This document shows positions 816-62,647 of a stretch of DNA of 64,000 nt, in pieces. Source of the DNA: Ornithinimicrobium sediminis (GTDB lineage Bacteria; Actinomycetota; Actinomycetes; Actinomycetales; Dermatophilaceae); NCBI RefSeq assembly GCF_021272345.1, contig NZ_JAJSDQ010000006.1:62001-126000 (forward strand), read 5' to 3'. Within the stretch, counting starts at the first letter, position 1; each line of letters opens with the position of its first letter. A model generated the notes under the pieces. That model worked only from the letters and a program-made list of their open reading frames with translations, had not been told where the DNA came from and made no database searches. Made by a program: the position numbers and the translations under genes.

Positions 816-882
816 CGGACGATCCTCGCACGCCACGGCGCACCCCGGCGTTGCGGTCCACGGTCCGGCCCACCCCTCGGCA

Positions 883-888
883 TACTCT
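883..888 (+). promoter_or_regulatory. Candidate -10 element of a leaderless promoter
   Basis: TACTCT fits the actinobacterial TAnnnT -10 pattern and ends 7 nt before the GTG at 896, so transcription should start at or next to the start codon. No clear -35 is visible. It lies in the 80-bp gap between divergent hemE and the DUF3000 gene. The assignment is inferred from spacing. Confidence 0.4.
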
Positions 889-895
889 TACGGGT

Positions 896-1519
896 GTGGT
901 GAGCCGCATCCCCGCCGGGCGCTCCGTGCCTGACGCAGAGTCCTCGCGAGACGCCGCCCTGTTCACCAGGGCACTGGCGGCGCTGCGTGGTGTCACCCTG
1001 CGCCCGGAGCTGGTGCTGGAGGAGGTGCCCGCCCCGACCCGCCTGTCACCGCACGCCGTCGCTCTCTCGGGTGAGGTCGTCACCTCCCGTGACCCCGACG
1101 ACGAGCCCGTCGCCACCGGACGCTTCGTCCTGCTCTTCGACCCCTCCGGCCCGGAGCCGTGGGAAGGGACCTGGCGCGCCGTCACCTACGCCAAGGCCAC
1201 GATGGAGCCGGAGGTCGGGGGTGACCCGATGGCCGGCGAGGTGGGCTGGTCCTGGCTGATGGACGCCCTGGGGTCCCGTGACCTGCGGTGGGCCGCCGAG
1301 GCCGGCACCGTCACCGGCGTCTCCTCCCAGAGCTTCGGCGCCCTCGCCGACCGCGAGCCCACGGTCGAGCTCGAGATCCGCGCCTCGTGGACCCCCCTCC
1401 TCGACGACGTCACCGACGTCGTGGGGCACCTGCAGGCCTGGGGCGACCTCATGTGCACGATCGCCGGACTGCCACCCCTGCCCGACGGTGTGGTCCCCCT
1501 CCCGGGCATCCGCAGGTAG
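896..1519 (+). CDS. DUF3000 family protein
   Basis: A 207-aa protein matching the DUF3000 family of Actinobacteria, whose function is unknown. Recognisable features are the conserved middle region (GRFVLLFDPSGPEPWEGTWR), the EVGWSWLMDAL segment and the C-terminal HLQAWGDLMCTIAGLPPLPDGV block. No signal peptide or membrane segment is visible. It lies between divergent hemE and ribonuclease D, the conserved place for this family. I chose GTG 896 because a -10-like element ends 7 nt upstream; GTG 899 is equally possible, and a longer frame from 788 would run into hemE. The stop is 9 nt before rnd, so the two are probably co-transcribed. Confidence 0.85.
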   Translation: MVSRIPAGRSVPDAESSRDAALFTRALAALRGVTLRPELVLEEVPAPTRLSPHAVALSGEVVTSRDPDDEPVATGRFVLLFDPSGPEPWEGTWRAVTYAKATMEPEVGGDPMAGEVGWSWLMDALGSRDLRWAAEAGTVTGVSSQSFGALADREPTVELEIRASWTPLLDDVTDVVGHLQAWGDLMCTIAGLPPLPDGVVPLPGIRR

Positions 1520-1528
1520 GGCCGGGGG

Positions 1529-2779
1529 ATGCCGGACGAGCACGACGACGAGGAGCTCGACGCCCTCGAACACCCGCGTGACGGCGTGCCCCCCGTGGTC
1601 GACGACCCCGACCTGCTGGAGCGGGCCGTCGACGCGCTCACCTCGGGCACCGGCCCGGTCGCGGTGGACGCCGAACGGGCCTCGGGCTACCGCTACGGGC
1701 AGAGCGCCTACCTCGTGCAGCTGCGCCGCGAGGGCGCGGGCACCTGGCTCGTCGACCCTGTGCCGTTGCCGGACCTGTCCGTGCTGGACGCGGCACTGGC
1801 CGACACCGAGTGGGTGCTCCACGCGGCCACCCAGGACATCCCGTGCCTGGCCGAGCTGGGCCTGCGCCCGCGCCGCCTGTTCGACACCGAGCTCGGCGCC
1901 CGGATCGCCGGGCTGCCGCGGGTCGGGCTGTCCTCGGTGCTCGAGTACTACCTGGGCGTGACCCTGGCCAAGGAGCACTCCGCGGTGGACTGGTCCACCC
2001 GGCCGCTGCCCGAGCCCTGGCTGCGCTACGCCGCCCTCGACGTCGAGCTGCTCGTCGAGCTGCGGCACCGCATGGAGCGGGACCTCGTCGAGCAGGGCAA
2101 GCTCGGGTGGGCCGCGCAGGAGTTCGACGCCCTCACCCGGTTCACCGGCCCCGAGCAACGGCCCGACCCGTGGCGACGCACCTCCGGCATGCACCGGGTG
2201 CGCACCCGGCGCGGGGCGGCGACGGTCCGCGAGCTGTGGCGCACCCGCGACGAGCTGGCCCGCCACCGGGACGTGACCCCGGGGCGCATCCTGCCGGACG
2301 CCACCCTCATCGACCTGGCCATGCGCGCTCCCGAGAGCGAGGCCACGCTGCACCGGGGCGCGACCGAGAAGAGCCAGACCCGGCAGCGCCGTGCCGCGCA
2401 GGGCCTGAAGCGACACGCCGGGGCGTGGGTCGGTGCCATCCGCGCCGCAGCCGAGATCCCCGACCGGGAGCTGCCCGACCTCACGACCGCCTCCGACGCA
2501 CCCCCTCCTCCCCGCGCCTGGGCCGACCGCGACCCCGTCGCCGCGGCCCGCCTCACGCAGGTCAAGGAGGAGCTCGCCGCGCTCTCCGAGCACTACGAGG
2601 TGCCGGTCGAGAACCTGCTGACCCCGGACACCCTGCGGCGCGTGCTGTGGCGCCCGCCGGACCGCGACGACCCGACCGCGGTGGCCGCAGCGCTCACGGC
2701 ATACGGAGCCCGTCCGTGGCAGTGCGAGCTCGTCGCGCCGGTCATCGCGCAGGCCCTGAAGGACCACCCGGCCGACTGA
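1529..2779 (+). CDS. rnd: Ribonuclease D (3'-5' exonuclease with HRDC domain)
   Basis: A DEDD-family 3'-5' exoribonuclease, 416 aa, expected to trim stable-RNA 3' ends in the cytosol. Exo I is AVDAERASGYRY (Asp47 and Glu49), Exo II is around TQDIPCL (Asp103), and Exo III is YAALD (Tyr167 and Asp171, the DEDDy pattern). A helical HRDC-type nucleic-acid-binding domain follows from about residue 210. The ATG at 1529 follows DUF3000 by 9 nt and is preceded by a short G-run. The C-terminal ~130 residues (KEELAALSEHYEVPVENLLTPDTLRR) probably form a second HRDC-like region, as in actinobacterial RNase D. Confidence 0.92.
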   Translation: MPDEHDDEELDALEHPRDGVPPVVDDPDLLERAVDALTSGTGPVAVDAERASGYRYGQSAYLVQLRREGAGTWLVDPVPLPDLSVLDAALADTEWVLHAATQDIPCLAELGLRPRRLFDTELGARIAGLPRVGLSSVLEYYLGVTLAKEHSAVDWSTRPLPEPWLRYAALDVELLVELRHRMERDLVEQGKLGWAAQEFDALTRFTGPEQRPDPWRRTSGMHRVRTRRGAATVRELWRTRDELARHRDVTPGRILPDATLIDLAMRAPESEATLHRGATEKSQTRQRRAAQGLKRHAGAWVGAIRAAAEIPDRELPDLTTASDAPPPPRAWADRDPVAAARLTQVKEELAALSEHYEVPVENLLTPDTLRRVLWRPPDRDDPTAVAAALTAYGARPWQCELVAPVIAQALKDHPAD

Positions 2780-5965: not shown

Positions 5966-7936
5966 CTACCGGTCGCACCCGGTGAACCGCCAGAGCGAGG
6001 CCTGGCCGCCCTCGTCGACCAGGGCGAAGTCCGGCCCGTCGGTGCGGATGGTGCGCAGGCCGGGGGTGGCCTCCTCCCACTTGGCACCCTCGTCGAAGGT
6101 CAGGTCGTCGGCGTACACGTGGGTCACGCCCAGGGCCCGCACCGCCTCGCACACCGCGGGGGTGCGCTGCCACTCGTCGAAGCGCTCGGCGAGCAGCAGC
6201 CGCTCCGGTGACCCGGCGACAGGCGTGAGCTGGGGGTAGACCACTGCGACGTCGCTACGGTGCAGCAGGTAGGGGGACCCCGCCGTGGGCTCGCCCAGCA
6301 CGACCGCCCCCTCCGGCAGCGTCTCCGCCGCCCGGTCGACCATGGCGATCTCGTCCTCCTCCAGCATGGTGCCCCAGGCGATCGGCCAGGTGGAGTAGGT
6401 CGAGGACATGACCTGGACGTGCATCGACCAGCGCAGCCCGGAGGTCAGCGCCACCACACCGACCACGAGGGCGAGCGCGGCGACGGTGACGCTCACGTCG
6501 CGCCAGCGTGCCAGCCGGTGCGCCACCCAGGCCCCGCCGCCCGCGGCGAGCATCACCGCGGGGACCACCAGCAGCTGGTTGATGCGGGAGGCCTGCGTGT
6601 ACCAGAAGCCCGCCAGCACCCGCAGCGGGTTCTCCGGCGGCCCGGCGGCCAGCAGGGTCAGCACGACGGAGAGGGCGAGCGCGACGACGAGCCAGCGTGC
6701 GTGCCGGCGGCGCAGGGACAGCACGACGCCGGTGACGACCAGCGCGGTGACCGCCAGGTTGACCGACCGGATGTCGTAGACGTAGATGAGCGGGTGGTCG
6801 ATGAGCAGGGCACCGATGCCCGGCCAGTAGGTCGGCTGGCCCCCGCGCTCGTAGCTCACGATCGCCTCCACCGGTGAGGAGGACAGCACGACCACGGAGC
6901 CGGTGACGGCGACCACCGTCCCCACCACCACGGCGGTGCCGACCAGGGCGCGGTGGCCGCGGCGCCAGTAGCGCCGTGCCTGCCGGCCCAGCAGCACCAC
7001 GAGCAGCGGCGCAGCGAGCAGCACCAGCGAGAACAGGCCGGAGCCGTGCGACAGCACGACACCGGCCACCGCCCACGCCAGGGCGATGCCGTAGGCGGTG
7101 TGCAGGCGCCAGCCGAGGTCACGCCGGAAGGTCGAGATCATCAGGGCGAGGGTGCCCGGCAGGCAGGCCACACTGAGCGCGAACGGCCAGACGCCCAGCA
7201 TGGAGACGGCGATCGCCGGGAAGGTCACGTAGGACGCCGCCAGCACCGGGGTGAGCACCACCGGCAGCGCCGTCCTGGGCCACACGACGCGGGCCAGGGC
7301 CACCAGGCCGCCGATCCAGACGACCGAGCCGAGCACGACCGAGGAGGCGTTCGCGGCCTCCGTCACCTGCTCGAACCCCGGGGCCACCGCCACGACCGAG
7401 TGCCAGACCGCGGGGTAGTACGGCGCCACGGTGTCGCCGTACATCGGCGCCAGGCCGCCCAGGCTGGAGCCGTTGCCGGTGTCCCGGATGAACCACAGCG
7501 CGTTGAGGTGGAAGACGGCGTCCCAGGCCTGCGGCGGCTGGTCGGCGTGCCGCATCCCGGTCATCATCGCGGCGCCGAGGACGCCGCCGCCGAGCACCCA
7601 CGCCGCCGCGAGCCACAGACGCTCGGGGCGCACCAGGGCGCGCTGCCCCGCGGGGCGCACGCCGGCCGGGTGGCTCAGGGTGCCGAGCCCGAGCCCGAGC
7701 CCCAGGGCCACCAGCGCTGCCGCGAGCACGGCGAGCAGGAACGTGCCCAGTGACCAGGTGACGCCGAGCAGGCCGTAGGCCACCGCGGCCACGCCGGCAT
7801 ACCCGGAGGTCACGGCCGGCCCCACCCCCCAGGCGACGAGCCCACGCACGCCGAGCAGGCGCACCACGGCATACCCGGGCAGCGTCCACAGCGCGGCCAG
7901 GCCGACCAGGCCCGGCACCACGGAGAGCCAGCTCAT
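5966..7936 (-). CDS. Large polytopic membrane protein, DUF6541-like
   Basis: 656 aa with hydrophobic segments through most of its length, starting with an N-terminal helix pair (SVVPGLVGLAALWTLPGYAVVRLL). It resembles the DUF6541 family of actinobacterial membrane proteins found in polysaccharide loci. A periplasmic-type loop with acidic residues (HADQPPQAWDAVFHLNALWFIRDTGN) follows the first helices, as in GT-C glycosyltransferases, and a soluble C-terminal part of about 140 residues ends the protein. A GT-C transferase or glycan polymerase role is inferred from topology and context. Its ATG overlaps the stop of the UDP-sugar dehydrogenase gene in an ATGA, so it is translationally coupled to it. 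Confidence 0.65.
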   Translation of the reverse strand: MSWLSVVPGLVGLAALWTLPGYAVVRLLGVRGLVAWGVGPAVTSGYAGVAAVAYGLLGVTWSLGTFLLAVLAAALVALGLGLGLGTLSHPAGVRPAGQRALVRPERLWLAAAWVLGGGVLGAAMMTGMRHADQPPQAWDAVFHLNALWFIRDTGNGSSLGGLAPMYGDTVAPYYPAVWHSVVAVAPGFEQVTEAANASSVVLGSVVWIGGLVALARVVWPRTALPVVLTPVLAASYVTFPAIAVSMLGVWPFALSVACLPGTLALMISTFRRDLGWRLHTAYGIALAWAVAGVVLSHGSGLFSLVLLAAPLLVVLLGRQARRYWRRGHRALVGTAVVVGTVVAVTGSVVVLSSSPVEAIVSYERGGQPTYWPGIGALLIDHPLIYVYDIRSVNLAVTALVVTGVVLSLRRRHARWLVVALALSVVLTLLAAGPPENPLRVLAGFWYTQASRINQLLVVPAVMLAAGGGAWVAHRLARWRDVSVTVAALALVVGVVALTSGLRWSMHVQVMSSTYSTWPIAWGTMLEEDEIAMVDRAAETLPEGAVVLGEPTAGSPYLLHRSDVAVVYPQLTPVAGSPERLLLAERFDEWQRTPAVCEAVRALGVTHVYADDLTFDEGAKWEEATPGLRTIRTDGPDFALVDEGGQASLWRFTGCDR

Positions 7937-12771: not shown

Positions 12772-14145
12772 ATGCCCACCACCCTGACCTTCCTCGGAGC
12801 GGCCGGCACGGTCACGGGCAGCAAGTTCGTCCTCGAGCGGGAGGGGCGCCGCACGATGGTCGACTGCGGCCTCTACCAGGGCGAGCGCGAGTGGCGCCGC
12901 CGCAACTGGGACGCGCTGCCGGTGGCTCCGGCGAGCATCAGCGACGTCGTCCTCAGCCACGCCCACCTGGACCACTGCGGCTACCTGCCGGCACTGGTGC
13001 GCAAGGGCTTCCCCGGACCGGTCTGGGCGACCGAGGGCACCGCTGCCCTGGCCGCCATCGTGCTGCGCGACAGCGCCCACCTCATCGAGGAGGAGGCGCG
13101 GTATGCCGCAGCGGGCGGCTGGTCCAAGCACTCCCCTCCGCTGCCGCTCTACACCGTCGCCGACGCCGACCGTGCCGTCGCCGCCTTCCGTGCCCTGCCC
13201 TTCCACGCTCCGCGGGACCTCGGGGACGGCACCCTGGCCACCCTCGTCCCCGCGGGGCACATCCTCGGCTCGGCCAGCGTGCACGTCGCCGCGGGCCAGG
13301 CCTCCGTGCTCTTCTCGGGTGACCTGGGCCGTCCGGACCACCCGCTCCTGCGCCCGCGGGGCCGGCCGCCGGCAGCGCGGACCGTCGTGGTGGAGTCGAC
13401 GTACGGCGACCGCACCCACCCCGCCCCCGACGAGGAGCACGCCGGCCTGGCCGCCGTCGTCCGCCGGACGGTGCGTCGCGGTGGCTCGGTGCTCGTCCCG
13501 GCGTTCGCGGTCGACCGGACCGAGGTGGTGCTGCTGGCCCTCGCCCGCCTCATGGCCTCCCACCAGGTGCCCGAGGTGCCGGTCTTCGTGGACAGCCCCA
13601 TGGCGCTGAAGGTCCTCGACGTCTACCTGCGCCCGGACCTGCGTGCCGAGCTCCGGCCGGGGGTCGTCGCGGAGATCGACAGCATCCCCCGGCTGCACGC
13701 CGCGGCGAGCGCAGAGGAGTCCGAGCGGCTGAACGACCCCACCGAGCCGTGCGTCATCGTGTCGGCCTCCGGCATGGCCACCGGCGGCCGGGTCATCCAC
13801 CACCTGGCCCACATGCTGCCGGACCGGCGCCACACGGTCGTGCTCGCCGGCTACCAGGGGGTGGGCACCCGGGGCCGGGCGCTGCGGGACGGCGCGACCG
13901 AGGTCAAGATCCACGGCCGCTACGTGCGGGTGCGTGCCGAGGTGGTCAGCGAGGAGGAGTTCTCCGTCCACGCGGACGGCCCCGAGCTGCTGGCCTGGCT
14001 GGCGGAGCTGCCCAGTCCTCCGGAGACGGTCTACGTCCTGCACGGCGAGCCGGAGGCGGCCCGCGCGCTCGCGGCACGGGTCCGCGAGCAGCTGGACTGC
14101 GCCGTCGCCGTGCCCTGGCTGGGCGAGAAGGTGGTCGTCGGCTAG
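12772..14145 (+). CDS. MBL-fold/beta-CASP hydrolase (RNA-processing type)
   Basis: 457 aa with an N-terminal metallo-beta-lactamase fold and an inserted beta-CASP domain, the architecture of nucleic-acid hydrolases such as CPSF73-like RNases. Zinc-ligand motif 2 is HAHLDHCG; GHILGSA and SGDLGR follow. Beta-CASP motif A is STYGDRTH, motif B PAFAVDRTE, and motif C is SASGMATGGR with FSVHADGPEL. All metal ligands appear intact, so an active RNase or DNase is expected. AAGGAG at 12761-12766 fixes ATG 12772. The DosR-like box upstream suggests induction by hypoxia or redox stress. Its TAG stop overlaps the TAG of the convergent crcB gene in a shared CTAG. Confidence 0.88.
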   Translation: MPTTLTFLGAAGTVTGSKFVLEREGRRTMVDCGLYQGEREWRRRNWDALPVAPASISDVVLSHAHLDHCGYLPALVRKGFPGPVWATEGTAALAAIVLRDSAHLIEEEARYAAAGGWSKHSPPLPLYTVADADRAVAAFRALPFHAPRDLGDGTLATLVPAGHILGSASVHVAAGQASVLFSGDLGRPDHPLLRPRGRPPAARTVVVESTYGDRTHPAPDEEHAGLAAVVRRTVRRGGSVLVPAFAVDRTEVVLLALARLMASHQVPEVPVFVDSPMALKVLDVYLRPDLRAELRPGVVAEIDSIPRLHAAASAEESERLNDPTEPCVIVSASGMATGGRVIHHLAHMLPDRRHTVVLAGYQGVGTRGRALRDGATEVKIHGRYVRVRAEVVSEEEFSVHADGPELLAWLAELPSPPETVYVLHGEPEAARALAARVREQLDCAVAVPWLGEKVVVG

Positions 14146-30865: not shown

Positions 30866-31336
30866 TCAGCCCCAGACCGACTCCGCGCCGCTGTGCCCGG
30901 CCAGCACCGTGAGCACCAGGGTGGCCGCCGCCGCGGCCAGGGCCAGGACGACGACGACGACCCGCAGGGCCCTGCCCCGCAGCCACGGCCACCGCTGCGT
31001 CGTGACCGGCGCATACACGGCATACAGCAGGATGCTGGCTGCTCCGAGGACGAGGGAGGCGACCGCGGCGTAGAGCCCCCACGACCCGTGGGTCTCGACC
31101 GCGTCGCTGAGCAGCCCCGACTCCTCGTAGGTGGTGTAGAGGTCACCTCCCGACAGCCGGGCCGTCCAGCCGGTCAGCGCCGAGGCGACCCCCAGCACCG
31201 GCAGACCCCAGGCCAGCCAGGAGCGGAAGCGAGGCAGCAGCACGGCCGCAACGACCGCCAGCGCGTTGACGACCAGCAGGACGACCGCCCCGTGGACGAC
31301 CAGCGGGTGCAGCGGCAGACCCAGCACATCAGGCAT
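30866..31336 (-). CDS. DUF2231 domain membrane protein
   Basis: 156 aa with four hydrophobic helices. The N-terminal LGLPLHPLVVHGAVVLL with paired His residues is the DUF2231 signature; related proteins include haem-handling or redox-associated membrane proteins, but the family has no settled function. ATG 31336 is preceded by GGGAGGA at proper spacing. It lies 49 bp upstream of the phosphatase gene, in the same direction. Confidence 0.8.
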   Translation of the reverse strand: MPDVLGLPLHPLVVHGAVVLLVVNALAVVAAVLLPRFRSWLAWGLPVLGVASALTGWTARLSGGDLYTTYEESGLLSDAVETHGSWGLYAAVASLVLGAASILLYAVYAPVTTQRWPWLRGRALRVVVVVLALAAAAATLVLTVLAGHSGAESVWG

Positions 31337-35656: not shown

Positions 35657-36967
35657 GTGACCGAACGAGCCTTCGGCTTCCGCACCCGTGCCCTGCACGC
35701 CGGCGGTGTGCCCGACCCGACCACCGGCGCGCGGGCGGTGCCCGTCTACCAGACGACGAGCTTCGTCTTCTCCGACACCACCGACGCGGCCAACCTCTTC
35801 GCCCTGCAGAAGTACGGCAACATCTACTCCCGCATCGGCAACCCGACCGTGGCCGCGCTCGAGGAGCGCCTCGCCTCGCTCGAGGGCGGCCTGGGCGCCG
35901 TCGCGACGGCCTCCGGCATGTCGGCGGAGTTCGTCACCTTCGCCGCGCTGGCCGGTGCCGGCGACCACATCGTGGCCGCCGCCTCGCTCTACGGGGGCAC
36001 CGTCACCCAGCTCGACGTCACCCTGCGCCGGTTCGGGGTCGAGACGACGTTCGTGCCCGGCACCGAGCCGGCCGACTACGCCGCAGCCGTCACCGACCGC
36101 ACCAAGGCGGTCTACGCGGAGGTCGTCGCCAACCCCTCCGGGGAGGTCACCGACATCGCCGCGCTGGCCGAGGTCGCGCACGCCCACGGCATACCGCTGG
36201 TCATCGACGCGACCCTCGCCACGCCCTACCTCGTCCGTCCGATCGAGCACGGCGCCGACATCGTGATCCACTCGCTCACCAAGTTCATCGGCGGGCACGG
36301 CACCACCCTCGGGGGCGTCGTCGTCGAGTCCGGCCGGTTCGACTGGGGCAGCGGACGCTTCCCGACCATGACCGAGCCGGTCCCGTCCTACGGGGGCGTC
36401 TCCTGGTGGGAGAACTTCGGCGAGTACGGCTTCCTCACCAAGCTGCGCACCGAGCAGCTGCGGGACATCGGCCCGGCCCTGTCCCCCACGGCGGCGTTCC
36501 AGCTGCTGCAGGGTGTCGAGACGCTGCCGCAGCGGATGGACGCCCACGTGGCCAACGCCCGTGAGGTCGCAGCCTGGCTGGAGGCCGACCCGCGCATCGG
36601 CTACGTCACCTACGCCGGCCTGCCCTCCCACCCGCACCACGACCGGGCCCGGCGCTACCTGCCGCTGGGCCCCGGGGCCGTCTTCGCCTTCGGCGTGGGT
36701 GCCGCCGCCGGGCAGGACGGCCGGGACGCGGGACGGCGCTTCATCGAGTCCGTGCAGCTCGCGAGCCACCTGGCGAACGTCGGCGACGCCCGCACCCTGG
36801 TGATCCACCCGGCCTCGACCACCCACCAGCAGCTCTCCGACGACCAGCTCGCCGCGGCCGGCGTGGCGGAGGACCTGGTGCGCATCTCGGTCGGCCTCGA
36901 GGACGTGGCCGACATCATCTGGGACCTGGACCAGGCCCTGACCGCAGCGACAGGAGCCACCCGATGA
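35657..36967 (+). CDS. metY: O-acetylhomoserine aminocarboxypropyltransferase (sulfhydrylase, MetY)
   Basis: 436-aa PLP enzyme of the Cys/Met metabolism family. HSLTKFIGGHGTTLGG carries the PLP lysine (Lys209); YSRIGNPTVAALEERLASLEGG and ASGMSAEF form the cofactor site; the C-terminal SVGLEDVADIIWDLDQAL is typical. It makes homocysteine from O-acetylhomoserine and sulfide, joining sulfur released from imported sulfonates to methionine synthesis. GTG 35657 lies three bases after the permease stop, with GGAGG upstream in the permease gene. Its stop overlaps the next ATG (ATGA). Being on the Cys/Met-leader mRNA, it is probably under the same control. Confidence 0.92.
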   Translation: MTERAFGFRTRALHAGGVPDPTTGARAVPVYQTTSFVFSDTTDAANLFALQKYGNIYSRIGNPTVAALEERLASLEGGLGAVATASGMSAEFVTFAALAGAGDHIVAAASLYGGTVTQLDVTLRRFGVETTFVPGTEPADYAAAVTDRTKAVYAEVVANPSGEVTDIAALAEVAHAHGIPLVIDATLATPYLVRPIEHGADIVIHSLTKFIGGHGTTLGGVVVESGRFDWGSGRFPTMTEPVPSYGGVSWWENFGEYGFLTKLRTEQLRDIGPALSPTAAFQLLQGVETLPQRMDAHVANAREVAAWLEADPRIGYVTYAGLPSHPHHDRARRYLPLGPGAVFAFGVGAAAGQDGRDAGRRFIESVQLASHLANVGDARTLVIHPASTTHQQLSDDQLAAAGVAEDLVRISVGLEDVADIIWDLDQALTAATGATR

Positions 36968-39517: not shown

Positions 39518-40418
39518 GGGTGCGCACGACCAGGGCGGCCGGCCGCACGACCGCATCGAGCGCCGTCACGCCGGCGAACGGGTCGCCGTCGACCTGAGCC
39601 GTGAGCGGCACCGCGCTGGTGACCCTCACCCGGACGGCCGTGCGCGAGGTGTGCCCCGGCACGTCCCGGCGCAGGCCGAGCACCGCCTTGAGGACGACCG
39701 GTGCCCACTGCCCGACGTGCCGTGGCGCCAGGAGTGCGACGTCCAGGCGGCCGTCGTCGGGGCGTGCCCCCGGGAGCACCTGGATGCCGAGCGGGATGCG
39801 GGCACAGCTGCCGACCAGCACCGACCAGACGTCGTGCGCCCGCAGCGGCCCGCCGTCGAGGCTCACCTGCACCGGCACGAGCGGCTCACCCAGGCGCCAC
39901 AGGCCCGGCACGAGATAGGCCGGCCAGCCCACCGTCCGCTTCAGGCCCGGACACACGGCCGCCACCGTCGCGCCGTCCTGGCCCAGACCCGCGACGACCA
40001 GGGACGTGGTGCTCACCTCGCCGGCACCGGCACGGGTGAGCCGCACCGCGACGAGGTCCAGCGGGCGGTCGGCACCGGTCAGCGCGGCGGAGACCGCTGC
40101 GTCCACCGAGCGCAGCGGGATCCGCAGGTTGCGGGCCAGCAGGTTGGCGGTGCCCAGCGGCACCACCGCCAGGGGCACCCCGGTGTCCGCCAGCGCCTCG
40201 GCCGCCTCCCGCACCGTGCCGTCCCCACCGACGGCCACGACCACGTCGGCGCCTGCGGCCAGGGCCTGCCGCGTCTGGGCCCTGCCCGGCTCGGCCGGTG
40301 TCGTCGACCAGGCGAGCGGCTCGTCCCAGCCGTGCTCACGGCATACGGCACGGACCCGGCGCAGCGCCCGCCGCCGAGGGTCACGGACCGGGTTGGTGAC
40401 GACCGCGACCCGCGTCAC
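39510..40418 (-). CDS. Diacylglycerol/lipid kinase family protein
   Basis: 302 aa of the DagK/YegS-type lipid kinase fold. VAVVTNPVRDPRRR starts the N-domain, ADVVVAVGGDGTVREAAEAL carries the GGDGT nucleotide motif, and PLAVVPLGTANLLARNL the substrate-binding GTxN. The C-terminal beta-sandwich contains the usual LVVAGLGQDG and QVDGDP motifs. It would phosphorylate a membrane lipid such as diacylglycerol. GTG 40418 lies 10 nt after the dxs stop, so it is the distal gene of a dxs operon. Confidence 0.88.
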   Translation of the reverse strand: MTRVAVVTNPVRDPRRRALRRVRAVCREHGWDEPLAWSTTPAEPGRAQTRQALAAGADVVVAVGGDGTVREAAEALADTGVPLAVVPLGTANLLARNLRIPLRSVDAAVSAALTGADRPLDLVAVRLTRAGAGEVSTTSLVVAGLGQDGATVAAVCPGLKRTVGWPAYLVPGLWRLGEPLVPVQVSLDGGPLRAHDVWSVLVGSCARIPLGIQVLPGARPDDGRLDVALLAPRHVGQWAPVVLKAVLGLRRDVPGHTSRTAVRVRVTSAVPLTAQVDGDPFAGVTALDAVVRPAALVVRTLR

Positions 40419-43134: not shown

Positions 43135-45957
<2,823 letters not shown>

Positions 45958-46016: not shown

Positions 46017-47330
46017 TTCTACCCTTCCACGGCGCCCACCGGCACCCCGGGGTCTCTCCCCAGTCTTGCGCACGGGCTCGAAGAGGGCCACACACTCCAT
46101 GTGGTGCGTCATCGGGAAGGCGTCCAGCACCCGCAGCCGGGTCAGCTGCCACCCCACCGCCGCAAGGTATGCCGTGTCGCGCGCCAGCGCCGCCGGGTCG
46201 CACGCCACGTAGGCCACCGCCCTGGCCCGCAGCCGGGCGACGTCGCGCACGACCGCCTTGCCGGCCCCGGAGCGGGGCGGGTCGAGGACCACGACGTCGT
46301 AGCGCTCCCGGGCGTTGACCAGGCCACGCACGGCACGGTCGACCCGGTCGCGCCGCACCCGGGCGTGTCTCCAGGGGCGCAGGTTGTCCCTGGCGTGCTC
46401 CGCCCCGCCACGGTCGCCCTCGACCGCCAGCACCCGACCCCGGCCACCCACGGCCTGGGCCAGCCCGGCGGCGAAGAGCCCCACCCCGGCATACAGGTCG
46501 AGGGCCCGCTCCCCCGGCCGGGCGTCGAGCCAGCCGAGCACGGTGTCGGCGAAGGTCTGCGCCGCACCCGGGTGCACCTGCCAGAAGCCGCGGGCACCGA
46601 CGCCGAGCTCCACCTCACCCCCGGGGAGCGTGACGGCCTCGACCACGTCGGGCACGCGACCGCTGGTGGGCACCGGCACCTGCACCGCCGGGCCGCGGGA
46701 GGGAGCCACGACGTCGACCGCCTCCGCACCCGGGTGGGCCGTGGCCAGCACGCCGGTCGCGGTCACCTCCCGGACGGCGATGAGGCAGTCGTCGACCGGC
46801 ACGACCTCGTGGGACCGGTGCCGCCGCAGGCCGGCGCGGCCGCTGCCGTCGACGGCGAACTCCACCCGGGTGCGCCAGCCCAGACCGTCGTGGTCGCCGG
46901 GCACCGGCTCGCAGACGACCTCGCCCCCGAGGGCCTCGGCGAGGTCCACGCCCGCGAGCCGCTGGAACTGCTCCGCGACGACCGCGGCCTTCAGCCGGCG
47001 CTGCGCCGCGAGGTCGACGTGCTGGAAGTCGCAGCCTCCGCACCGTCCCGGGCCCGACCACGGGCAGGGGGGCAGCACCCGGTCGGCGGAGGGCTGCAGC
47101 ACCCGCACCGCGTCGGCGCGCAGGAAGCGCCCCCCGTGGCCCGAGCCGGTGACCTCCGCGACCACCCGCTCGCCCGGCAGGGTGTGCCGCACGAACACCA
47201 CGCGGCCCTCGTGCCGGGCCACGCAGTGCCCACCGTGCGCCACGGGGCCGACGACCAGCTCGACGCGGTCCCCGGGCGCGAGGTCCTCCGGTGCAGCGTC
47301 CGTCTGCGGTGCGGCCGGCTCAGTCGGCAC
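46008..47330 (-). CDS. TRAM-domain RNA (uracil-5-)-methyltransferase, RumA/TrmA-like
   Basis: 440 aa. An N-terminal TRAM domain (about residues 15-75) precedes CPWSGPGRCGGCDFQHVDL, whose cysteines probably bind an Fe-S cluster as in RlmD. The SAM domain has ALDLYAGVGLFAAGLA (motif I), VVLDPPRSGAGKAVV (motif IV with the DPPR) and ACDPAALARDTAYL with the catalytic Cys. It methylates a uridine in rRNA or tRNA. GTG 47330 overlaps the transporter gene by 11 nt. Its last residues Leu-Ser are encoded by TTA-TCT within the acnA palindrome; TTA is the rarest codon here. Confidence 0.9.
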   Translation of the reverse strand: MPTEPAAPQTDAAPEDLAPGDRVELVVGPVAHGGHCVARHEGRVVFVRHTLPGERVVAEVTGSGHGGRFLRADAVRVLQPSADRVLPPCPWSGPGRCGGCDFQHVDLAAQRRLKAAVVAEQFQRLAGVDLAEALGGEVVCEPVPGDHDGLGWRTRVEFAVDGSGRAGLRRHRSHEVVPVDDCLIAVREVTATGVLATAHPGAEAVDVVAPSRGPAVQVPVPTSGRVPDVVEAVTLPGGEVELGVGARGFWQVHPGAAQTFADTVLGWLDARPGERALDLYAGVGLFAAGLAQAVGGRGRVLAVEGDRGGAEHARDNLRPWRHARVRRDRVDRAVRGLVNARERYDVVVLDPPRSGAGKAVVRDVARLRARAVAYVACDPAALARDTAYLAAVGWQLTRLRVLDAFPMTHHMECVALFEPVRKTGERPRGAGGRRGRVELS

Positions 47331-49368
47331 GCGTGGGCTCCGTCCGGTGCTCCTGGTGCTCCCGCTCGGCGTCGGCCGGCTCGGCAGGTGGGGCGTCCGG
47401 CTCGGGGTTCTCGTCGTCCAGGGAGGAGCCCTGCCAGGGCACGGAGGCGACCACGACCCCGGGAGTGCGCATCAGGGCGTCGCGCAGCTGGTCCTGGGCG
47501 CGGTCGCGGAACCACCGCACCATGCGCCCGCTCGAGACGTACTCCGGCAGGTAGACGACCACCATGTCGCGCGGGCGGTCCCGGTGCAGCCGGCGCACGT
47601 AGTCGACGACGGGCCGGCCGGTCTCCCGGTAGGGCGACTCCAGGAAGCGCAGGGTGACCGGGATGTCACGCGCCTCCCAGGCGGCCCGCAGCGCCTGGGT
47701 CCGCTCCGGGGCGACGTCGACCGTGACGGCCTCCAGCACCTGCGGGCGGGTAGCCCGGGCGTAGGCCAGCGCCCGCATCGTGGGCCGGTCGACCCGCTCG
47801 ACGTGCACGAGCGCGTAGACGCGCGAGGGCACCGCCTCCTGCTCCACGGAGTCGTCGTCGGGCAGGGCCGTCTCGTCCGCGATCTCACGGTGCAAGCGGT
47901 AGACCATGGTCATCACCATCCAGAGCAGAGCGATTGCGAGCAGGGACAGGCCGGCCCCCTCGGTGAAGCGGGTGAGGATCACCACGACCAGCACGGTCAG
48001 CGAGACCGTCGCCCCCACCACGTTGATGGTGCGGCTGCGCTGCATCGCGCGACGGCGTGCCAGGCCGACCTCGAGGCGCAGCTGCCGGTTCCAGTGCCGC
48101 ACCATCCCGGCCTGGCTGAGCGTGAAGGAGATGAAGACCCCGACGATGTACATCTGGATCAGCTCGGTCACCGTCGCCTGGTAGACCAGCACCAGCGCCA
48201 GGGCCCCGGCGGCCAGCAGCAGGATGCCGTTGGAGTAGGTCAGGCGCAGGCCCCTGCTGAGCAGGCTGCTCGGCAGGAAGCCGTCCGTGGCCAGCCGCGA
48301 CGTGAGCTGGGGGAACCCGTTGAACGCGGTGTTGGCCGCGACGACGAGCATCACGCCGGTGGTCACCGCGACGACCAGCACGCCCAACGTCTCGGGCCCG
48401 TAGACGACCTGTGAGAGCTGGCCCAGCACGGTGTCCTGGACGAACTCGGGCCCGACGGTCTGTCCCTCGACCCGCAGCTGCTGCTCGGGCTCGACGGCGA
48501 TCTGGATGCCGGTCTCGCGCACCAGCAGGATGACCGAGAGCAGGATCGTGATCGACGTGGTGGCCATGATGAGCAGGATGCGAGCCGCGTTGGCGCTCTT
48601 GGGACGCTGCAGCGCGGGGACGCCGTTGGCCACCCCCTGCACGCCCGTCAGCGCCACCGTGCCGGAGGCGAAGGCCCGCAGCAGCAGGATGCCCAGGCCG
48701 ACCGCGGTGAGGGCCTCGTAGCCGGGCGCGGGGAGCATCGTGTAGGCCGCGCTCTCCGCGCGGTCCAGCGTGCCGGTGGCCCACTGCACCATGGCCACCC
48801 CGATCATCAGCGCCATGGAGCCCAGGAACGCGTAGACGGGCACGGCCAGCGCGCGCCCGGACTCCCGGACGCCGCGCAGGTTGATGAGCGTCAGCAGCCC
48901 CACCAGCGCCCCCGCGGCCACCGGCTCGTAGCCGCGCAGGAACACCAGGGCCGCCGCCGCGTTCTGCACCCCCGCCGAGACGGACACCGCCACGGTGAGG
49001 ACGTAGTCGACCATCAGCGCAGCCCCGACCCCCAGCCCGGCGGTCGGGCCGAGGTTGCGGGTCACCACCTCGTAGTCGCCGCCGCCGCTGGGGTAGGCGT
49101 GCACGTTCTGCCGGTAGGAGGCGACGATCACCGCCATGACGGCACAGACCGCCAGCGTGATCTCCCAGGAGTGCAGGAAGACCGCGACACCACCGGCGAG
49201 CGCCAGGGTGAGGACGATCTCGTCGGGGGCGTAGGCCACCGACGACAGGGCGTCGCTGGCGAAGACCGGCATACCGAGCCGCTTGGGCAGCAGGGTGTCG
49301 CTGAGGCGTTCGGTGCGCAGCGCGCGCCCGATGAACACGCGCTCCAGGACCTGCCGCGGACCACCCAT
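47320..49368 (-). CDS. APC-superfamily transporter, KimA-like potassium importer
   Basis: 682 aa: about 12 helices to residue ~440, then a cytosolic C-terminal domain of ~230 residues. DALSSVAYAPDEIVLTLAL and YPSGGGDYEVVTRNLGPTAGL are the substrate-site helices TM1 and TM3 of the KimA group of APC transporters. The VDYVRRLHRDRPRDMVVVYLPEYV part of the tail resembles a nucleotide-binding (USP-like) fold. Being divergent from two TrkA/RCK proteins supports a K+ role rather than amino acids. ATG 49368 was preferred over GTG 49392 because TAGACT ends 8 nt upstream. It ends inside the RumA-like gene. Confidence 0.85.
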   Translation of the reverse strand: MGGPRQVLERVFIGRALRTERLSDTLLPKRLGMPVFASDALSSVAYAPDEIVLTLALAGGVAVFLHSWEITLAVCAVMAVIVASYRQNVHAYPSGGGDYEVVTRNLGPTAGLGVGAALMVDYVLTVAVSVSAGVQNAAAALVFLRGYEPVAAGALVGLLTLINLRGVRESGRALAVPVYAFLGSMALMIGVAMVQWATGTLDRAESAAYTMLPAPGYEALTAVGLGILLLRAFASGTVALTGVQGVANGVPALQRPKSANAARILLIMATTSITILLSVILLVRETGIQIAVEPEQQLRVEGQTVGPEFVQDTVLGQLSQVVYGPETLGVLVVAVTTGVMLVVAANTAFNGFPQLTSRLATDGFLPSSLLSRGLRLTYSNGILLLAAGALALVLVYQATVTELIQMYIVGVFISFTLSQAGMVRHWNRQLRLEVGLARRRAMQRSRTINVVGATVSLTVLVVVILTRFTEGAGLSLLAIALLWMVMTMVYRLHREIADETALPDDDSVEQEAVPSRVYALVHVERVDRPTMRALAYARATRPQVLEAVTVDVAPERTQALRAAWEARDIPVTLRFLESPYRETGRPVVDYVRRLHRDRPRDMVVVYLPEYVSSGRMVRWFRDRAQDQLRDALMRTPGVVVASVPWQGSSLDDENPEPDAPPAEPADAEREHQEHRTEPTRAD

Positions 49369-54872: not shown

Positions 54873-55733
54873 TCAGCCGTGCAGCTCGACGAGCAGGGGG
54901 TGCAGGGTGGCGTGCAGACCGGGGGCCGCGGCGACGACCATGTCCCGCGAGGCAGGCCCGGCCAGCCCGGAGACCACGCCTCCCGCCTCGGTCACGACGA
55001 GCACGCCGGCCGCCATGTCCCAGGGCTGCAGCCCCCGCTCGTAGTAGGCGTCGACCCGGCCCGCGGCCACGTGGCACAGGTCGAGCGAGGCCGCCCCCAT
55101 CCGACGCAGGTCGCGCACCTGCGTGAGCATGCTGACGGCGATGTCACCCTGGGCCCGGCGGTCGTCCACGTCGTAGCTGAAGCCGGTGGCCAGCAGAGCC
55201 TTGGACGCCGACTCGGGCTCCCGCACGCGCAGCGCGTGACCCCGGATGTATGCCGTGCCGCCCGGCTCGTCGGGCCGGTCCAGCCGGGCGCCGCCACCGG
55301 CGCGGGCGTGGAAGACCTCGTCGACCCGCGGGTTGCACACCGCCCCGGCCACCGGCGTCCAGCCCCCGGGCACGGTGGGGTCACCGACGACGACGGCGAC
55401 GGACACGGCATACGCGGGCAGGTCGTAGAGGTAGTTGACCGTGCCGTCGATCGGGTCCAGCACCCAGGTGAGCCCCGAGGTGCCGGCCGACCACCCGTCC
55501 TCCTCGCCGAGGATGCCGTCGTCGGGGCGGGCGCTCGCGATGCGCTCCCGCAGCAGCGCCTCGCAGCGGGTGTCCATCACGGTCACGACGTCCAGGTCGG
55601 TGGCCTTGGTCTCCGCGACCGCGACCTGGTCGGGTCGCTCGTCGCGCACGAAGCGCCCGGCCGCCGTCGCCAGGTCCACGGCCAGCTGCTCGAGCGCGAC
55701 CCGCTCGGACTCGGCGGGAAGGTCGACCGGCAC
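54873..55733 (-). CDS. suhB: Inositol monophosphatase family protein
   Basis: 286 aa. Motifs of Mg-dependent inositol phosphatases: LGEEDGW (metal Glu), WVLDPIDGTVNYLYDLP (DPIDGT) and QPWDMAAGVLVVTEAGG. The ATKATDLDVVTVMD segment carries the first Asp. It should hydrolyse inositol-1-phosphate or a related sugar phosphate in the cytosol; SuhB is the closest name. GTG 55733 begins immediately after the ferrochelatase TGA, implying coupled translation. Confidence 0.88.
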   Translation of the reverse strand: MPVDLPAESERVALEQLAVDLATAAGRFVRDERPDQVAVAETKATDLDVVTVMDTRCEALLRERIASARPDDGILGEEDGWSAGTSGLTWVLDPIDGTVNYLYDLPAYAVSVAVVVGDPTVPGGWTPVAGAVCNPRVDEVFHARAGGGARLDRPDEPGGTAYIRGHALRVREPESASKALLATGFSYDVDDRRAQGDIAVSMLTQVRDLRRMGAASLDLCHVAAGRVDAYYERGLQPWDMAAGVLVVTEAGGVVSGLAGPASRDMVVAAAPGLHATLHPLLVELHG

Positions 55734-56945: not shown

Positions 56946-57613
56946 CGCGGGTCTCCTGTGCGCAGGGCGGTCGGGGCGTTGAGGTCGAGGATCACCGCGA
57001 CCATGCGGATCACGAACACCAGCATGACGGATGCCCACACGACCCATTCACTGAGGTGGCCGAGCTCGAAGGACACGACCACGATCGTGGAGCCGATGAG
57101 GGCCGGCACGGCATACAGCTCGCGTCTGAGCAGCTCGGGCACCTGCCCCGCCAGCACGTCGCGCAGGACACCTCCCCCGCAGGCGGTGATCACCCCGATG
57201 AGGACGCAGGCCAGCGGGTCGGCACCAAAGGCGACCGCCTTCAGCGCGCCGCCGACGCTGAAGATCGCCAGTCCGGCGGCGTCCAGGGTGCGCACCGACT
57301 GGGACATGATCTCGCGGCGCACGCGCGGCATGTCCGAGACGGCGGCCATGACCTGGTGGTGGGTCGCGAAGACGAACAGCCCGGCGGTCAGGGCGGTGAC
57401 GAGCAGCCGCCAGTCGCTGATCCCCACCGGCGGCACGTCGCCGAGGAAGACGTCGCGAAGCATGCCGCCGCCGAGCCCCGCGATCCACGCCAGCACCGCG
57501 ATGCCGATCATGTCCAGCCCTTTGCGCACCCCCACGAGCGCGCCCGACAGGGCGAACACGAACACCCCGATGATGTCGAGAAAGAGTTGCAGTCCTTCGT
57601 TCGAGGCGACCAT
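56942..57613 (-). CDS. TRIC cation channel family protein (YicG-like)
   Basis: 223 aa with seven helices in two three-helix repeats. ALSGALVGVRKGLDMIG ... GGGMLRDVFLGD in the first half and AGLAIFSVGGALKA ... TACGGGVLRDVLAGQVP in the second are the twin GGG(x)LRD motifs of bacterial TRIC/UPF0126 channels. It would form a homotrimeric cation channel in the membrane. ATG 57613 was chosen; longer frames add a low-complexity stretch. TACCTT ends 10 nt before it. It heads the hemH-suhB gene run. Confidence 0.88.
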   Translation of the reverse strand: MVASNEGLQLFLDIIGVFVFALSGALVGVRKGLDMIGIAVLAWIAGLGGGMLRDVFLGDVPPVGISDWRLLVTALTAGLFVFATHHQVMAAVSDMPRVRREIMSQSVRTLDAAGLAIFSVGGALKAVAFGADPLACVLIGVITACGGGVLRDVLAGQVPELLRRELYAVPALIGSTIVVVSFELGHLSEWVVWASVMLVFVIRMVAVILDLNAPTALRTGDPR

Positions 57614-61055: not shown

Positions 61056-61100
61056 CGGAGCACGGGTGACACTCCGCTGCCTGTCGCGCAGCGTGCCGGG

Positions 61101-61117
61101 GGGACCTTCGGCCCTGG
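61101..61117. promoter_or_regulatory. DosR/DevR-type box 3
   Basis: GGGACCTTCGGCCCTGG is the same 16-mer as box 2, extended by one G. GGAGGTG follows 43 bp downstream of the box start, as in box 1. It precedes the ATG at 61168 by ~50 bp and lies ~60 bp from the divergent tdk start. Confidence 0.6.
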
Positions 61118-61167
61118 CACCGTGCGGCCGACCGCGGTCCACTGGAGGTGGCGGAAGGAGCAGGCCG

Positions 61168-61479
61168 ATGAGCACGCCCGCCACGGGCAGCCGGTCTCAC
61201 CACGCCCTGCCGACGACGCGGTCCGGGTGGTGGTCGGTCGGTCTGTGCTCCGTGATGCTGGTGAGCGGGGTGCTGTCGTGGTGGCTGGTGGAGGTGGCCG
61301 CGCAGGCCGGTGACTTCCTGCCGGTGCTGATGGCGGGGCTCACCTCGACCGTCGCCCTGGTCGGCACCGTCGTCTGTGGGCTGTATGCCGTCGCTCGTCT
61401 CCACGACCGGTCGACGCTGGTCGTCCTCGCCCTGGCGGGCGCACTCCTGACGATGGTCGTGACCCCGCTCCTGGTGTGA
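61168..61479 (+). CDS. Small membrane protein downstream of a DosR box
   Basis: 103 aa with three hydrophobic helices (WWSVGLCSVMLVSGVLSWWLV, FLPVLMAGLTSTVALVGTVVCGLYAVA, LVVLALAGALLTMVVTPLLV) after a polar N-terminus. No family is recognised. GGAAGGAG fixes ATG 61168. The DosR-type box upstream suggests expression at low oxygen alongside the beta-CASP protein and the alcohol dehydrogenase. It ends 16 nt before the convergent phosphatase-like gene. Confidence 0.7.
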   Translation: MSTPATGSRSHHALPTTRSGWWSVGLCSVMLVSGVLSWWLVEVAAQAGDFLPVLMAGLTSTVALVGTVVCGLYAVARLHDRSTLVVLALAGALLTMVVTPLLV

Positions 61480-61495
61480 CCGCGACCGAGGTGGC

Positions 61496-62647
61496 TCAGG
61501 CGGGCCGGTGCAGCAGGGGGACGAGCGTCTCCTCGTCGGTCAGTGAGCCGTGGTGGCCGCGCAGGGCCAGCACCTGGGGTCGCAGCAGGCGCGAGTCCAG
61601 GAGGGTCCACTGTCCTCGCATGGCGACGACGACGTCGCCGATGCGCTCCAGCACCTCGGGCCGCACGGGTCCGAACCAGCCGTCGGCCACCGCCTCCTCG
61701 CGCGTGCGGACGAGCGCGTCGTCCCCGAGCACCTCCCGCCAGGTGCCGGCGACCTCGTCGGCAGCCCCCGGCCGGCAGTAGACGTACGGCGCCCGCGGCT
61801 CACCGCCGAGGAGCTCGACCCCCTCCCCCAGCTCGGGCGAGAAGGCGAGGTCGTGCCGCTGCCACTCGGGGGCCTCCACCATGCCGTGGTCGGCCGTCAC
61901 CGTCAGCGACGTGCCGCCGGGCAGCCGGGCAGCCAGGGTGCGCAGCCCGCTGTCCAGCTCCTCCACGGCCTCGCCCCACTGCCACGAGTCCGGGCCGTGC
62001 ACGTGGCCGACCTTGTCCACCTCCGGCCAGTAGAGGTAGACCAGCGCCGGTCCCTCGCCGGCGAGGGCCTGCAGGGTCTGCTCGATCCGCTCGTCGACCT
62101 CTCTGGCGGCCAGGAACCGCCCGCCCGCCAGCGCTGCGCGGGTCAGGCCGGACCCGGCGAACTCGCCACGGGACACCGTGCAGACCCGCACGCCCGCGCG
62201 CTCGGCCCGCTGCAGCAGGGTCGGATGGGGCTGGTAGCTCGCAGGGTCCGGACCGTCCTTCCACGACAGGTGGTTGAGCAGCCGGTCGGTGGTGCCCGGC
62301 AGCCGGACCTGCCACCCGACCAGCCCGTGCTGACCGGCGAGCAGCCCCGTGCCGAAGGACGTCAGGCTGGTCGTGGTCGTCGAGGGGAACCCGCTGCGCA
62401 CCTGCGGCGCCGCAGGCTCCAGGGTGCGCAGGAAGGGCGCGTGGCCGAGCCGCCTCGCCAGCTGCCGTGCTCCCAGACCGTCGGCCAGCACGACGACCGC
62501 CGAACGGGCGGGGGGCAGCGCGACCACGGGCTGTGCCCAGGCGTCCCCCTCGGCCGGGGCCACCCGCAACGAGGCGACCACCGAGGGCAGCACGTCGGCC
62601 AGGCTCACGGCATACGGCGGCTCCGCCCAGCCGAGGTGCGGGCTCAC
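61496..62647 (-). CDS. Alkaline phosphatase/nucleotide pyrophosphatase family protein
   Basis: 383-aa cytosolic member of the alkaline phosphatase superfamily. VVVLADGLGARQL carries the first metal Asp, GFPSTTTTSLTSFGTG the catalytic Thr, YLYWPEVDKVGHVHG Asp/His ligands and VTADHGMV the D-H-G metal motif. The arrangement matches type I phosphodiesterase/nucleotide pyrophosphatases. Without a signal peptide it likely acts inside. GTG 62647 overlaps the DUF5998 stop (GTGA). Confidence 0.88.
   Translation of the reverse strand: MSPHLGWAEPPYAVSLADVLPSVVASLRVAPAEGDAWAQPVVALPPARSAVVVLADGLGARQLARRLGHAPFLRTLEPAAPQVRSGFPSTTTTSLTSFGTGLLAGQHGLVGWQVRLPGTTDRLLNHLSWKDGPDPASYQPHPTLLQRAERAGVRVCTVSRGEFAGSGLTRAALAGGRFLAAREVDERIEQTLQALAGEGPALVYLYWPEVDKVGHVHGPDSWQWGEAVEELDSGLRTLAARLPGGTSLTVTADHGMVEAPEWQRHDLAFSPELGEGVELLGGEPRAPYVYCRPGAADEVAGTWREVLGDDALVRTREEAVADGWFGPVRPEVLERIGDVVVAMRGQWTLLDSRLLRPQVLALRGHHGSLTDEETLVPLLHRPA

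What the first reader, a model, noticed from the sequence alone, without database searches (positions are those of the whole stretch)
879..62615. A GGCATAC/GTATGCC heptamer recurs across the window and dictates rare codons
By eye I count about 27 copies. GGCATAC starts at 879, 2698, 7796, 7868, 8323, 12360, 14588, 31019, 31889, 36188, 40340, 42623, 43546, 46488, 49268, 49740, 55407, 57110 and 62609. GTATGCC starts at 13101, 24374, 29272, 40533, 45355, 46167, 55248 and 61383. With base composition near 72% GC about six would be expected by chance. Inside genes the motif is reached by codons otherwise almost absent: ATA in Gly-Ile-Pro (12360, 36188, 40533, 49740), TAT in Tyr-Ala (7796, 7868, 8323, 13101, 43546, 46488, 55407, 57110), GCA in Ala-Tyr (2698, 31889, 45355, 46167, 55248), and GTA at 40340. 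The motif, not the amino acid, seems to be kept, as for a chromosome-wide signal (recombination, segregation, nucleoid protein or methylase) or a motif-directed mutation bias.
Basis: partly seen in the sequence, partly recalled or inferred. Interest (0 to 1): 0.75.

Follow-up and report, generated by a model that had tools for sequence, protein, structure and literature searches.

The report
Possible DNA-uptake tag in actinobacteria
A short DNA word is repeated over a thousand times around this bacterium's chromosome, bending codon choice to keep it, and it looks like the 'self' tags that some unrelated bacteria use to choose which free DNA they take up.

Summary
The window has 28 GGCATAC (shuffles: mean 2, maximum 8), all inside CGGCATAC. 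The genome has 1,102 CGGCATAC against 130 of the reversed control word. Codons are bent to fit: all 4 ATA codons of the window's gene models lie in the motif (0 of 545 Ile codons outside), as do 13 of 24 TAT codons. Synonymous-codon shuffles give 3.2 copies against 26.

The motif is non-palindromic and strand-balanced, without leading/lagging bias in a complete congener. It is enriched in one actinobacterial family only, patchily, with lineage variants. It is nearly absent from a conjugative-type island and from two prophages of near-host GC inside the competence gene comEC of congeners. This is the anatomy of the DNA uptake sequences of Neisseriaceae and Pasteurellaceae. KOPS, Chi, codon bias and restriction sites fit worse.

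Best reading (0.65): a convergent DNA-uptake-sequence system in Gram-positive bacteria. No receptor was found, competence genes do not separate carriers from non-carriers, and no uptake was tested. Ten literature searches (open-licence library) found no such report for Actinobacteria.

The parts
879..885 (+). GGCATAC copy, between gene models
2698..2704 (+). GGCATAC copy, codons ACG GCA TAC
7796..7802 (+). GGCATAC copy, antisense to gene, TAT codon
7868..7874 (+). GGCATAC copy, antisense to gene, TAT codon
8323..8329 (+). GGCATAC copy, antisense to gene, TAT codon
12360..12366 (+). GGCATAC copy, ATA codon (Gly-Ile-Pro)
13101..13107 (-). GGCATAC copy, antisense to gene, TAT codon
14588..14594 (+). 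GGCATAC copy, antisense to gene, TAT codon
24374..24380 (-). GGCATAC copy, GCA codon
29272..29278 (-). GGCATAC copy, antisense, Gly-Met-Pro, no rare codon
31019..31025 (+). GGCATAC copy, antisense to gene, TAT codon
31889..31895 (+). GGCATAC copy, GCA codon
32648..32654 (-).
36188..36194 (+). GGCATAC copy, ATA codon (Gly-Ile-Pro)
40340..40346 (+). GGCATAC copy, antisense to gene, GTA codon
40533..40539 (-). GGCATAC copy, ATA codon (Gly-Ile-Pro); kept in L028, not in L026
42623..42629 (+). GGCATAC copy, antisense to gene, TAT codon
43546..43552 (+). GGCATAC copy in aconitase gene, antisense, TAT codon; not kept in 6 congener loci
45355..45361 (-). GGCATAC copy in aconitase gene, GCA codon; not kept in 6 congener loci
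46167..46173 (-). GGCATAC copy in TrmA-like gene, GCA codon; not kept in 6 congener loci
46488..46494 (+). GGCATAC copy in TrmA-like gene, antisense, TAT codon; kept in 1 of 6 congener loci
49268..49274 (+). GGCATAC copy, antisense, Gly-Met-Pro, no rare codon
49740..49746 (+). GGCATAC copy, ATA codon (Gly-Ile-Pro)
55248..55254 (-). GGCATAC copy, GCA codon
55407..55413 (+). GGCATAC copy, antisense, TAT codon; kept in 3 of 5 congener loci
57110..57116 (+). GGCATAC copy, antisense, TAT codon; kept in 6 of 6 congener loci
61383..61389 (-). GGCATAC copy, antisense, TAT codon
62609..62615 (+). GGCATAC copy, antisense, TAT codon

Best explanation
(C)GGCATAC is most likely a DNA uptake sequence: a short non-palindromic tag, scattered on both strands, that a surface DNA receptor of the natural-transformation machinery prefers, so that cells preferentially take up kin DNA. 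Fragments with the tag enter and recombine more often; chance gains of the tag therefore spread and losses are repaired, until it sits in genes even where it needs rare codons (ATA, TAT). Drift of the receptor's specificity would give the lineage variants. Mobile elements, which arrive by other routes, lack the tag. SHOWN: excess, strand balance, codon bending, partial site conservation, lineage variants, restriction to one family, depletion in mobile elements, presence of ComEC, ComEA-like and Tad-pilus genes. INFERRED: that these bacteria are transformable, that the Tad/Flp pilus (as in Micrococcus luteus) carries the receptor, and that the motif raises uptake.
For: Excess genome-wide and over a synonymous-codon null. 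Strand balance: 553/549 in the own genome, 101/92 CGGCATAC in 20 places of the G007 chromosome, 136 leading/136 lagging GGCATACC there. Enriched (over 100 per Mb) in 29 of 30 same-genus relatives, 21 of 40 genomes of other genera of the family, 0 of 46 genomes of other families of the order (read). Lineage variants: own CACGGCATAC, G007 GGCATACC, G037 CGGCATACG, G053 and G070 CGGCGTAC, G054 GGCGTACG. Conservation of TAT in the motif 23 of 42 against 0 of 9. Depletion: own conjugative-type island 2 seen, 38.9 expected at host density; prophages in comEC of G002 and G017 3 seen/13.0 and 2 seen/17.5 expected, with GC 0.71 against flanks 0.73-0.74. Competence parts: ComEC, ComEA-like gene, Tad genes. 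The family resemblance to uptake sequences rests on passages of PMC3630211 and PMC5031613.
Against: No sequence-specific receptor was found, and none of the genes in the comEC and tad loci compared is peculiar to carriers. ComEC (109 of 117), TIGR03816 (113 of 117) and TIGR03819 (117 of 117, 98 over cut-off) occur in carriers and non-carriers alike. Two congeners with comEC split by a prophage (G002, G017) and one with only part of the domain matched (G015) still carry the motif; this needs recent loss. Natural competence of the genus was not found in print. Spacing is not more even than random, inverted-pair terminators are scarce, GCA in the motif was kept in 0 of 10 comparisons against 18 of 142 outside, and the exact heptamer is kept at only 19 of 71 aligned sites. 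Depletion in mobile DNA would also follow from the rival mechanisms.
Confidence: 0.65

Rival explanations
1. Binding site of a resident chromosomal protein (nucleoid, repair or recombination factor, Chi-like), kept by selection in the host chromosome.
For: Chromosome-wide, conserved at some sites, missing from newly arrived DNA; lineage variants could follow a changing DNA-binding domain.
Against: No strand polarity (136/136), unlike KOPS and most Chi sites (recalled); copies mostly in genes (113 of 131) and spaced at random; whole genera of the family, and G022 within the genus, do without it.
Confidence: 0.15
2. A non-palindromic DNA modification site whose modification or repair biases mutation towards the motif (motif-directed mutation bias).
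Against: Restriction-modification sites are usually neutral or avoided rather than enriched (recalled); prophages of near-host GC hold it at a small fraction of host density; some sites are kept in several congeners although the surrounding proteins are only about 55-65% identical (57110 in 6 of 6), which a pure mutation bias with turnover does not predict. No methylome was available.
Confidence: 0.12
3. Polarity signal for FtsK/SpoIIIE (KOPS/SRS) or another replichore marker.
For: Chromosome-wide octamer with many copies.
Against: Leading/lagging 136/136 in G007; balanced within 21-kb loci of many species; not enriched at one end of the G007 chromosome.
Confidence: 0.02
4. Codon or amino-acid bias, composition, or sequencing-adapter contamination.
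For: An Illumina adapter quoted in a paper listed contains ACGGCATAC.
Against: 26 coding copies against 3.2 in synonymous-codon shuffles; several frames, both orientations, different amino acids; present in a single-contig congener chromosome and many separate assemblies; near-host-GC prophages hold few.
Confidence: 0.01

Closest known systems
DNA uptake sequence (DUS) of Neisseriaceae and its dialects (PMC3630211, passages read)
   Same: Thousands of copies of a short non-palindromic word, both strands, often in genes; lineage dialects with a constant core; some genera of the family without it; depleted in integrative conjugative elements (PMC7371117, abstract).
   Different: Different sequence and phylum; no type IVa pilus markers in most of the family (PilM in 4 of 70 family relatives); no known ComP-like receptor; few inverted-pair terminators; function untested.
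Uptake signal sequence (USS) of Pasteurellaceae (PMC5031613 and PMC2346458, passages read)
   Same: Short over-represented tag, intragenic, with one orientation commoner in reading frames.
   Different: Different sequence; Gram-negative host; uptake bias shown there, not here.
Flp-pilus-dependent transformation of Micrococcus luteus (PMC4322843, title and abstract start; term search)
   Same: Same order of actinobacteria, with ComEC/ComEA and Tad/Flp genes as the uptake machine.
   Different: The terms 'uptake sequence' and 'uptake signal' do not occur in that paper's main text; no tag is known to me for M. luteus.
HIP1 octamer of cyanobacteria (recalled, no call)
   Same: Over-represented octamer genome-wide, largely in coding DNA.
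   Different: HIP1 is palindromic; this motif is not and has a lineage-specific flank.
KOPS/SRS and Chi (recalled, no call)
   Same: Short chromosome-wide non-palindromic words.
   Different: Those are strand-polar; this one is not.

Membership tests
DNA uptake sequence (DUS/USS) | Hundreds to thousands of copies of a short word, far above chance | tested here: met
   1,102 CGGCATAC against 130 of the reversed control; 26 coding copies in the window against 3.2 in the codon null
DNA uptake sequence (DUS/USS) | Both orientations, all round the chromosome, no replichore polarity | tested here: met
   553/549; 136/136 leading/lagging in G007, 20 stretches of 20 kb
DNA uptake sequence (DUS/USS) | Lineage dialects sharing a core | tested here: met
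   the CGGCGTAC/GGCGTACG variant is a weaker excess (5-8 fold over order-2 chance) and G049 did not bear it out
DNA uptake sequence (DUS/USS) | Under-represented in mobile and accessory DNA | tested here: met
   One island and two prophages; no wider accessory-genome test
DNA uptake sequence (DUS/USS) | Host has a DNA uptake machine | tested here: met
   ComEC, ComEA-like, Tad genes; genes only, competence not shown
DNA uptake sequence (DUS/USS) | Inverted pairs forming terminators (as in Neisseria) | tested here: inconclusive
   0 inverted pairs within 50 bp among 135 own copies, 5 among 380 in G007; 12 of 52 noncoding copies in G037
DNA uptake sequence (DUS/USS) | Sequence-specific receptor (ComP-type pilin) | tested here: inconclusive
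   No carrier-specific gene seen in 9 comEC loci and 8 tad loci; rest of the genome not compared
DNA uptake sequence (DUS/USS) | Motif raises DNA uptake and transformation | not testable with these tools
   needs an uptake assay
KOPS/SRS or Chi | Strand polarity with replication | tested here: not met
   136/136
HIP1-type palindromic octamer | Palindrome | tested here: not met
   CGGCATAC is not its own reverse complement
Restriction-modification recognition site | Modified base at the site | not testable with these tools
   needs long-read methylome

The most novel reading that the evidence does not exclude
A third, independently evolved system of DNA uptake sequences and the first in Gram-positive bacteria: a family of actinobacteria tags its own DNA with (C)GGCATAC, reads the tag with a receptor on a Tad/Flp-type uptake machine, and has split the tag into dialects (a core A-to-G change and different flanks) that act as barriers to exchange between genera, while prophages insert into comEC and would switch the exchange off.
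Probability: 0.55. Interest if true: 0.9.

Novelty: new variant of a known kind. Interest (0 to 1): 0.8.

Why it matters
A 2016 review names two families, Neisseriaceae and Pasteurellaceae, as having uptake tags and treats them as convergent (PMC5031613, passages). A third lineage, with a single membrane and a different pilus type, would let one test whether such tags arise by molecular drive from a biased receptor, and would give a handle for finding the DNA receptor of actinobacterial competence. Whatever the mechanism, an 8-base word that overrides codon usage about a thousand times per genome across much of a family is a strong genomic signal for which I found no explanation in print, and its gaps mark mobile elements.

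Tried and rejected
Chance and composition: rejected by dinucleotide shuffles, Markov models of order 1 to 4 and synonymous-codon shuffles. KOPS/Chi: disfavoured by strand balance.

Type IVa pilus as the uptake machine: PilM matches in 23 of 117 genomes, but in only 4 of the 70 family relatives, two of these weakly. Competence-gene presence as a discriminator: it does not discriminate (TIGR03819 hits below cut-off are other secretion ATPases, 13 of 14 control genomes ring).

'The one congener without the motif, G022, has a broken comEC': its frame closes at 407 aa, 95 bases before the end of an 8.5-kb contig, so it is a hint only. No comparable word was found in 165 kb of G022.

A gene of the com or tad loci present only in carriers: none in 9 and 8 loci. 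Even spacing: CV 0.87, p 0.13. G049 as a CGGCGTAC carrier: 752 copies but not a leading word in 100 kb (16 against 6-7), dropped. An outgroup, G092, also has a mild CGGCGTAC excess (900 genome-wide; 28 against 11-12 in 100 kb), so counts alone do not define that variant; in G053, G070 and G054 the word or its one-base shift is the leading octamer. CGAAGGGG of Janibacter and G067: strand-balanced, 45 and 47 in 7 loci; 84 coding, 50 noncoding and 8 close inverted pairs in 9 loci; left open.

Literature: ten searches. 'DNA uptake sequence' with Actinobacteria and overrepresented, with natural transformation and Micrococcales, and with Actinomycetota gave 0, 0 and 0 papers; 'uptake signal sequence' with Actinobacteria gave 2 (listing only: a review on M. 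tuberculosis gene transfer and one on pathogen genome dynamics); the word GGCATAC gave 5,972 papers, 20 listed, none listed on this. The library holds open-licence papers only.
Full report
WHAT WAS CLAIMED AND WHAT IS THERE. Shuffles that keep dinucleotides give a mean of 2.07 and never more than 8. Every copy is preceded by C, and 17 of 28 read ACGGCATAC. With my own gene models (63 genes, 95% of the window) 26 copies are inside genes, in several frames and both orientations. All 4 ATA codons of these genes are inside the motif (0 of 545 Ile codons outside), and 13 of 24 TAT codons are. Reshuffling synonymous codons leaves 3.24 copies on average, 8 at most in 300 trials, against 26. A codon-pair null was not run.

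GENOME AND FAMILY. The window lies in a 3.53-Mb, 16-contig genome with 1,178 GGCATAC (590 and 588 by strand) against 294 of the reversed control, and 1,102 CGGCATAC against 130. Over 100 CGGCATAC per Mb are found in 29 of 30 same-genus relatives (G022 has 50 copies in all), in 21 of 40 genomes of other genera of the family (most in G037, 4,724 in 4.2 Mb), and in 0 of 46 genomes of other families of the order (my reading of the table). Of 394 genomes drawn over the class, eight of them of this family with the own one, no genome outside the family exceeds about 52 per Mb (read by eye). Names come from the loci, counted (33 of 34 handles held). Among the carriers are Ornithinimicrobium, Serinicoccus, Knoellia, Intrasporangium, Terrabacter, Humibacillus xanthopallidus, Flexivirga, Nostocoides jenkinsii, Phycicoccus elongatus and Arsenicicoccus cauae. 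Without it are two Janibacter, Phycicoccus jejuensis, P. endophyticus, Phycicoccus sp. CSK15P-2, Mobilicoccus caccae and Arsenicicoccus piscis. Identical counts show that the window's genus is that of Ornithinimicrobium sp. F0845 and O. pekingense. A one-gene tree of 34 rows needs 6 changes of the label carrier/non-carrier (shuffled mean 10.1, 0 of 500 shuffles as low): clustered, but lost or gained several times.

LINEAGE VARIANTS. The surroundings differ. The own genome prefers CACGGCATAC (47 seen, 0.5 expected in 464 kb). The single-contig congener G007 has GGCATACC (272 against 9 to 15 in 400 kb), with C or G before it. G037 has CGGCATACG (132 against 3.8 in 171 kb). Some genomes counted as non-carriers have a one-letter variant as their leading octamer: CGGCGTAC in G053 (62 against 8 to 10 in 80 kb) and G070 (66 against 11 to 14 in 100 kb), and its shift GGCGTACG in G054 (72 against 9 in 100 kb); an Allobranchiibius locus shows 24 CGGCGTAC against 2.8. 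Genome-wide these are 2,216, 3,903 and 1,359 CGGCGTAC, against 33 to 590 in most other family genomes (G049 752); but genomes of other families reach 900, so the count alone is not diagnostic, and an outgroup sample has a mild excess too. In G037 and G007 most one-letter departures from the core lie near chance; in the own genome some are raised, which may mean a looser or decaying signal.

POSITION. There is no polarity: 101 plus and 92 minus CGGCATAC in 20 stretches round G007, and GGCATACC 136 leading and 136 lagging by the sign of local GC skew. In 364 kb of own DNA (island left out) 113 of 131 copies are coding, where 87.5% of the DNA is coding; 41 run with the gene and 72 against it. Unequal orientation in reading frames is also reported for neisserial and pasteurellacean uptake sequences (PMC2346458, passages). 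Noncoding DNA holds somewhat more than its share in G037 (52 of 201, 16% of DNA). Spacing is near random.

CONSERVATION. Own genes of the window and four fetched loci were aligned with 15 congener loci; pairs under 45% identity were dropped. Of 71 aligned sites 19 keep the exact heptamer, and 13 of the 22 where the amino acids are the same. Where Tyr is conserved, TAT is kept in 23 of 42 comparisons inside the motif and 0 of 9 outside (p 0.0025). GCA goes the other way: 0 of 10 inside, 18 of 142 outside; ATA is 1 of 2. These are sequence pairs, not independent events.

MOBILE DNA LACKS IT. A stretch of own contig C7 (215-318 kb, GC 0.66) has 2 copies where host density predicts 38.9; it carries a TrwC relaxase and a TraG/TrwB-type coupling protein. 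Because its GC differs, a cleaner test is in congeners G002 and G017, where a roughly 40-kb prophage (serine recombinase, terminase) splits comEC at the same point of the competence domain. The prophages have GC 0.71 (flanks 0.73-0.74) and 3 and 2 CGGCATAC where host density predicts 13.0 and 17.5. Both are above what their own composition gives (0.5 and 0.2). This argues against a compositional cause, and against a mutational one unless it is slow. In Neisseriaceae atypical DUS distribution has been used to find integrative conjugative elements (PMC7371117, abstract).

HOW IT MOST LIKELY WORKS. Short, non-palindromic, a thousand copies or more, both strands, codon-bending, variants with a constant core, some genera without it, mobile elements nearly empty: this is the description of DNA uptake sequences in PMC3630211 (passages) and PMC5031613 (passages). 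The family has genes for a Gram-positive uptake machine: ComEC (own gene at C7:77317-79692), a neighbouring ComEA-like gene (a congener's has SLBB and helix-hairpin-helix domains) and Tad/Flp genes. Transformation of Micrococcus luteus depends on Flp-pilus biogenesis (PMC4322843, title and abstract start). Inferred chain: a receptor on that machine prefers the motif; tagged kin DNA enters and recombines more often; the tag accumulates; receptor drift makes variants. Prophage insertion into comEC would then cut the host off from exchange; I recall a comparable insertion in comK of Listeria.

WHAT SPEAKS AGAINST. No receptor was found; com and tad genes are as common in genera without the motif; competence of the genus is undocumented in what I could search; inverted-pair terminators are scarce; two congeners with split comEC still carry the motif. 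A resident DNA-binding protein or a modification-linked mutation bias stays possible (together about 0.27).

VERDICT. Observation confirmed and enlarged.

Noticed in passing
L174-L176 (G002:C1:1155001-1215000) and L177-L179 (G017:C46:60001-120000): In two congeners a roughly 40-kb prophage with a serine recombinase sits inside comEC at the same point of the competence domain; the two share sequence in places.
   Followed up: partly
own genome C7 about 215-318 kb (L099-L104): Low-GC (0.66) element with TrwC relaxase and TraG/TrwB-type coupling protein, 2 motif copies in 103 kb.
   Followed up: partly
L156-L159, L186 (G067), L030 and L044 (Janibacter): Another strand-balanced enriched word, CGAAGGGG/CCCCTTCG (55 against 9 in 80 kb of G067), partly in terminator-like stems, mostly coding.
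   Followed up: partly
own genome C7:683-696 kb (L181, L210): The own tad locus looks split: pilin and TadE-like genes and the ATPase gene are about 11 kb apart with unrelated genes between, while in G007 they are about 2 kb apart.
   Followed up: partly
L167 (G022:C11), L194-L207: The one congener without the motif (50 copies) has a comEC frame that closes early near a contig end; assembly error not excluded.
   Followed up: partly
window 24374-24400 and 31010-31025: Partial copies (GTATGCG, GCATACAC) lie within about 20 bases of full copies (contexts).
   Followed up: no
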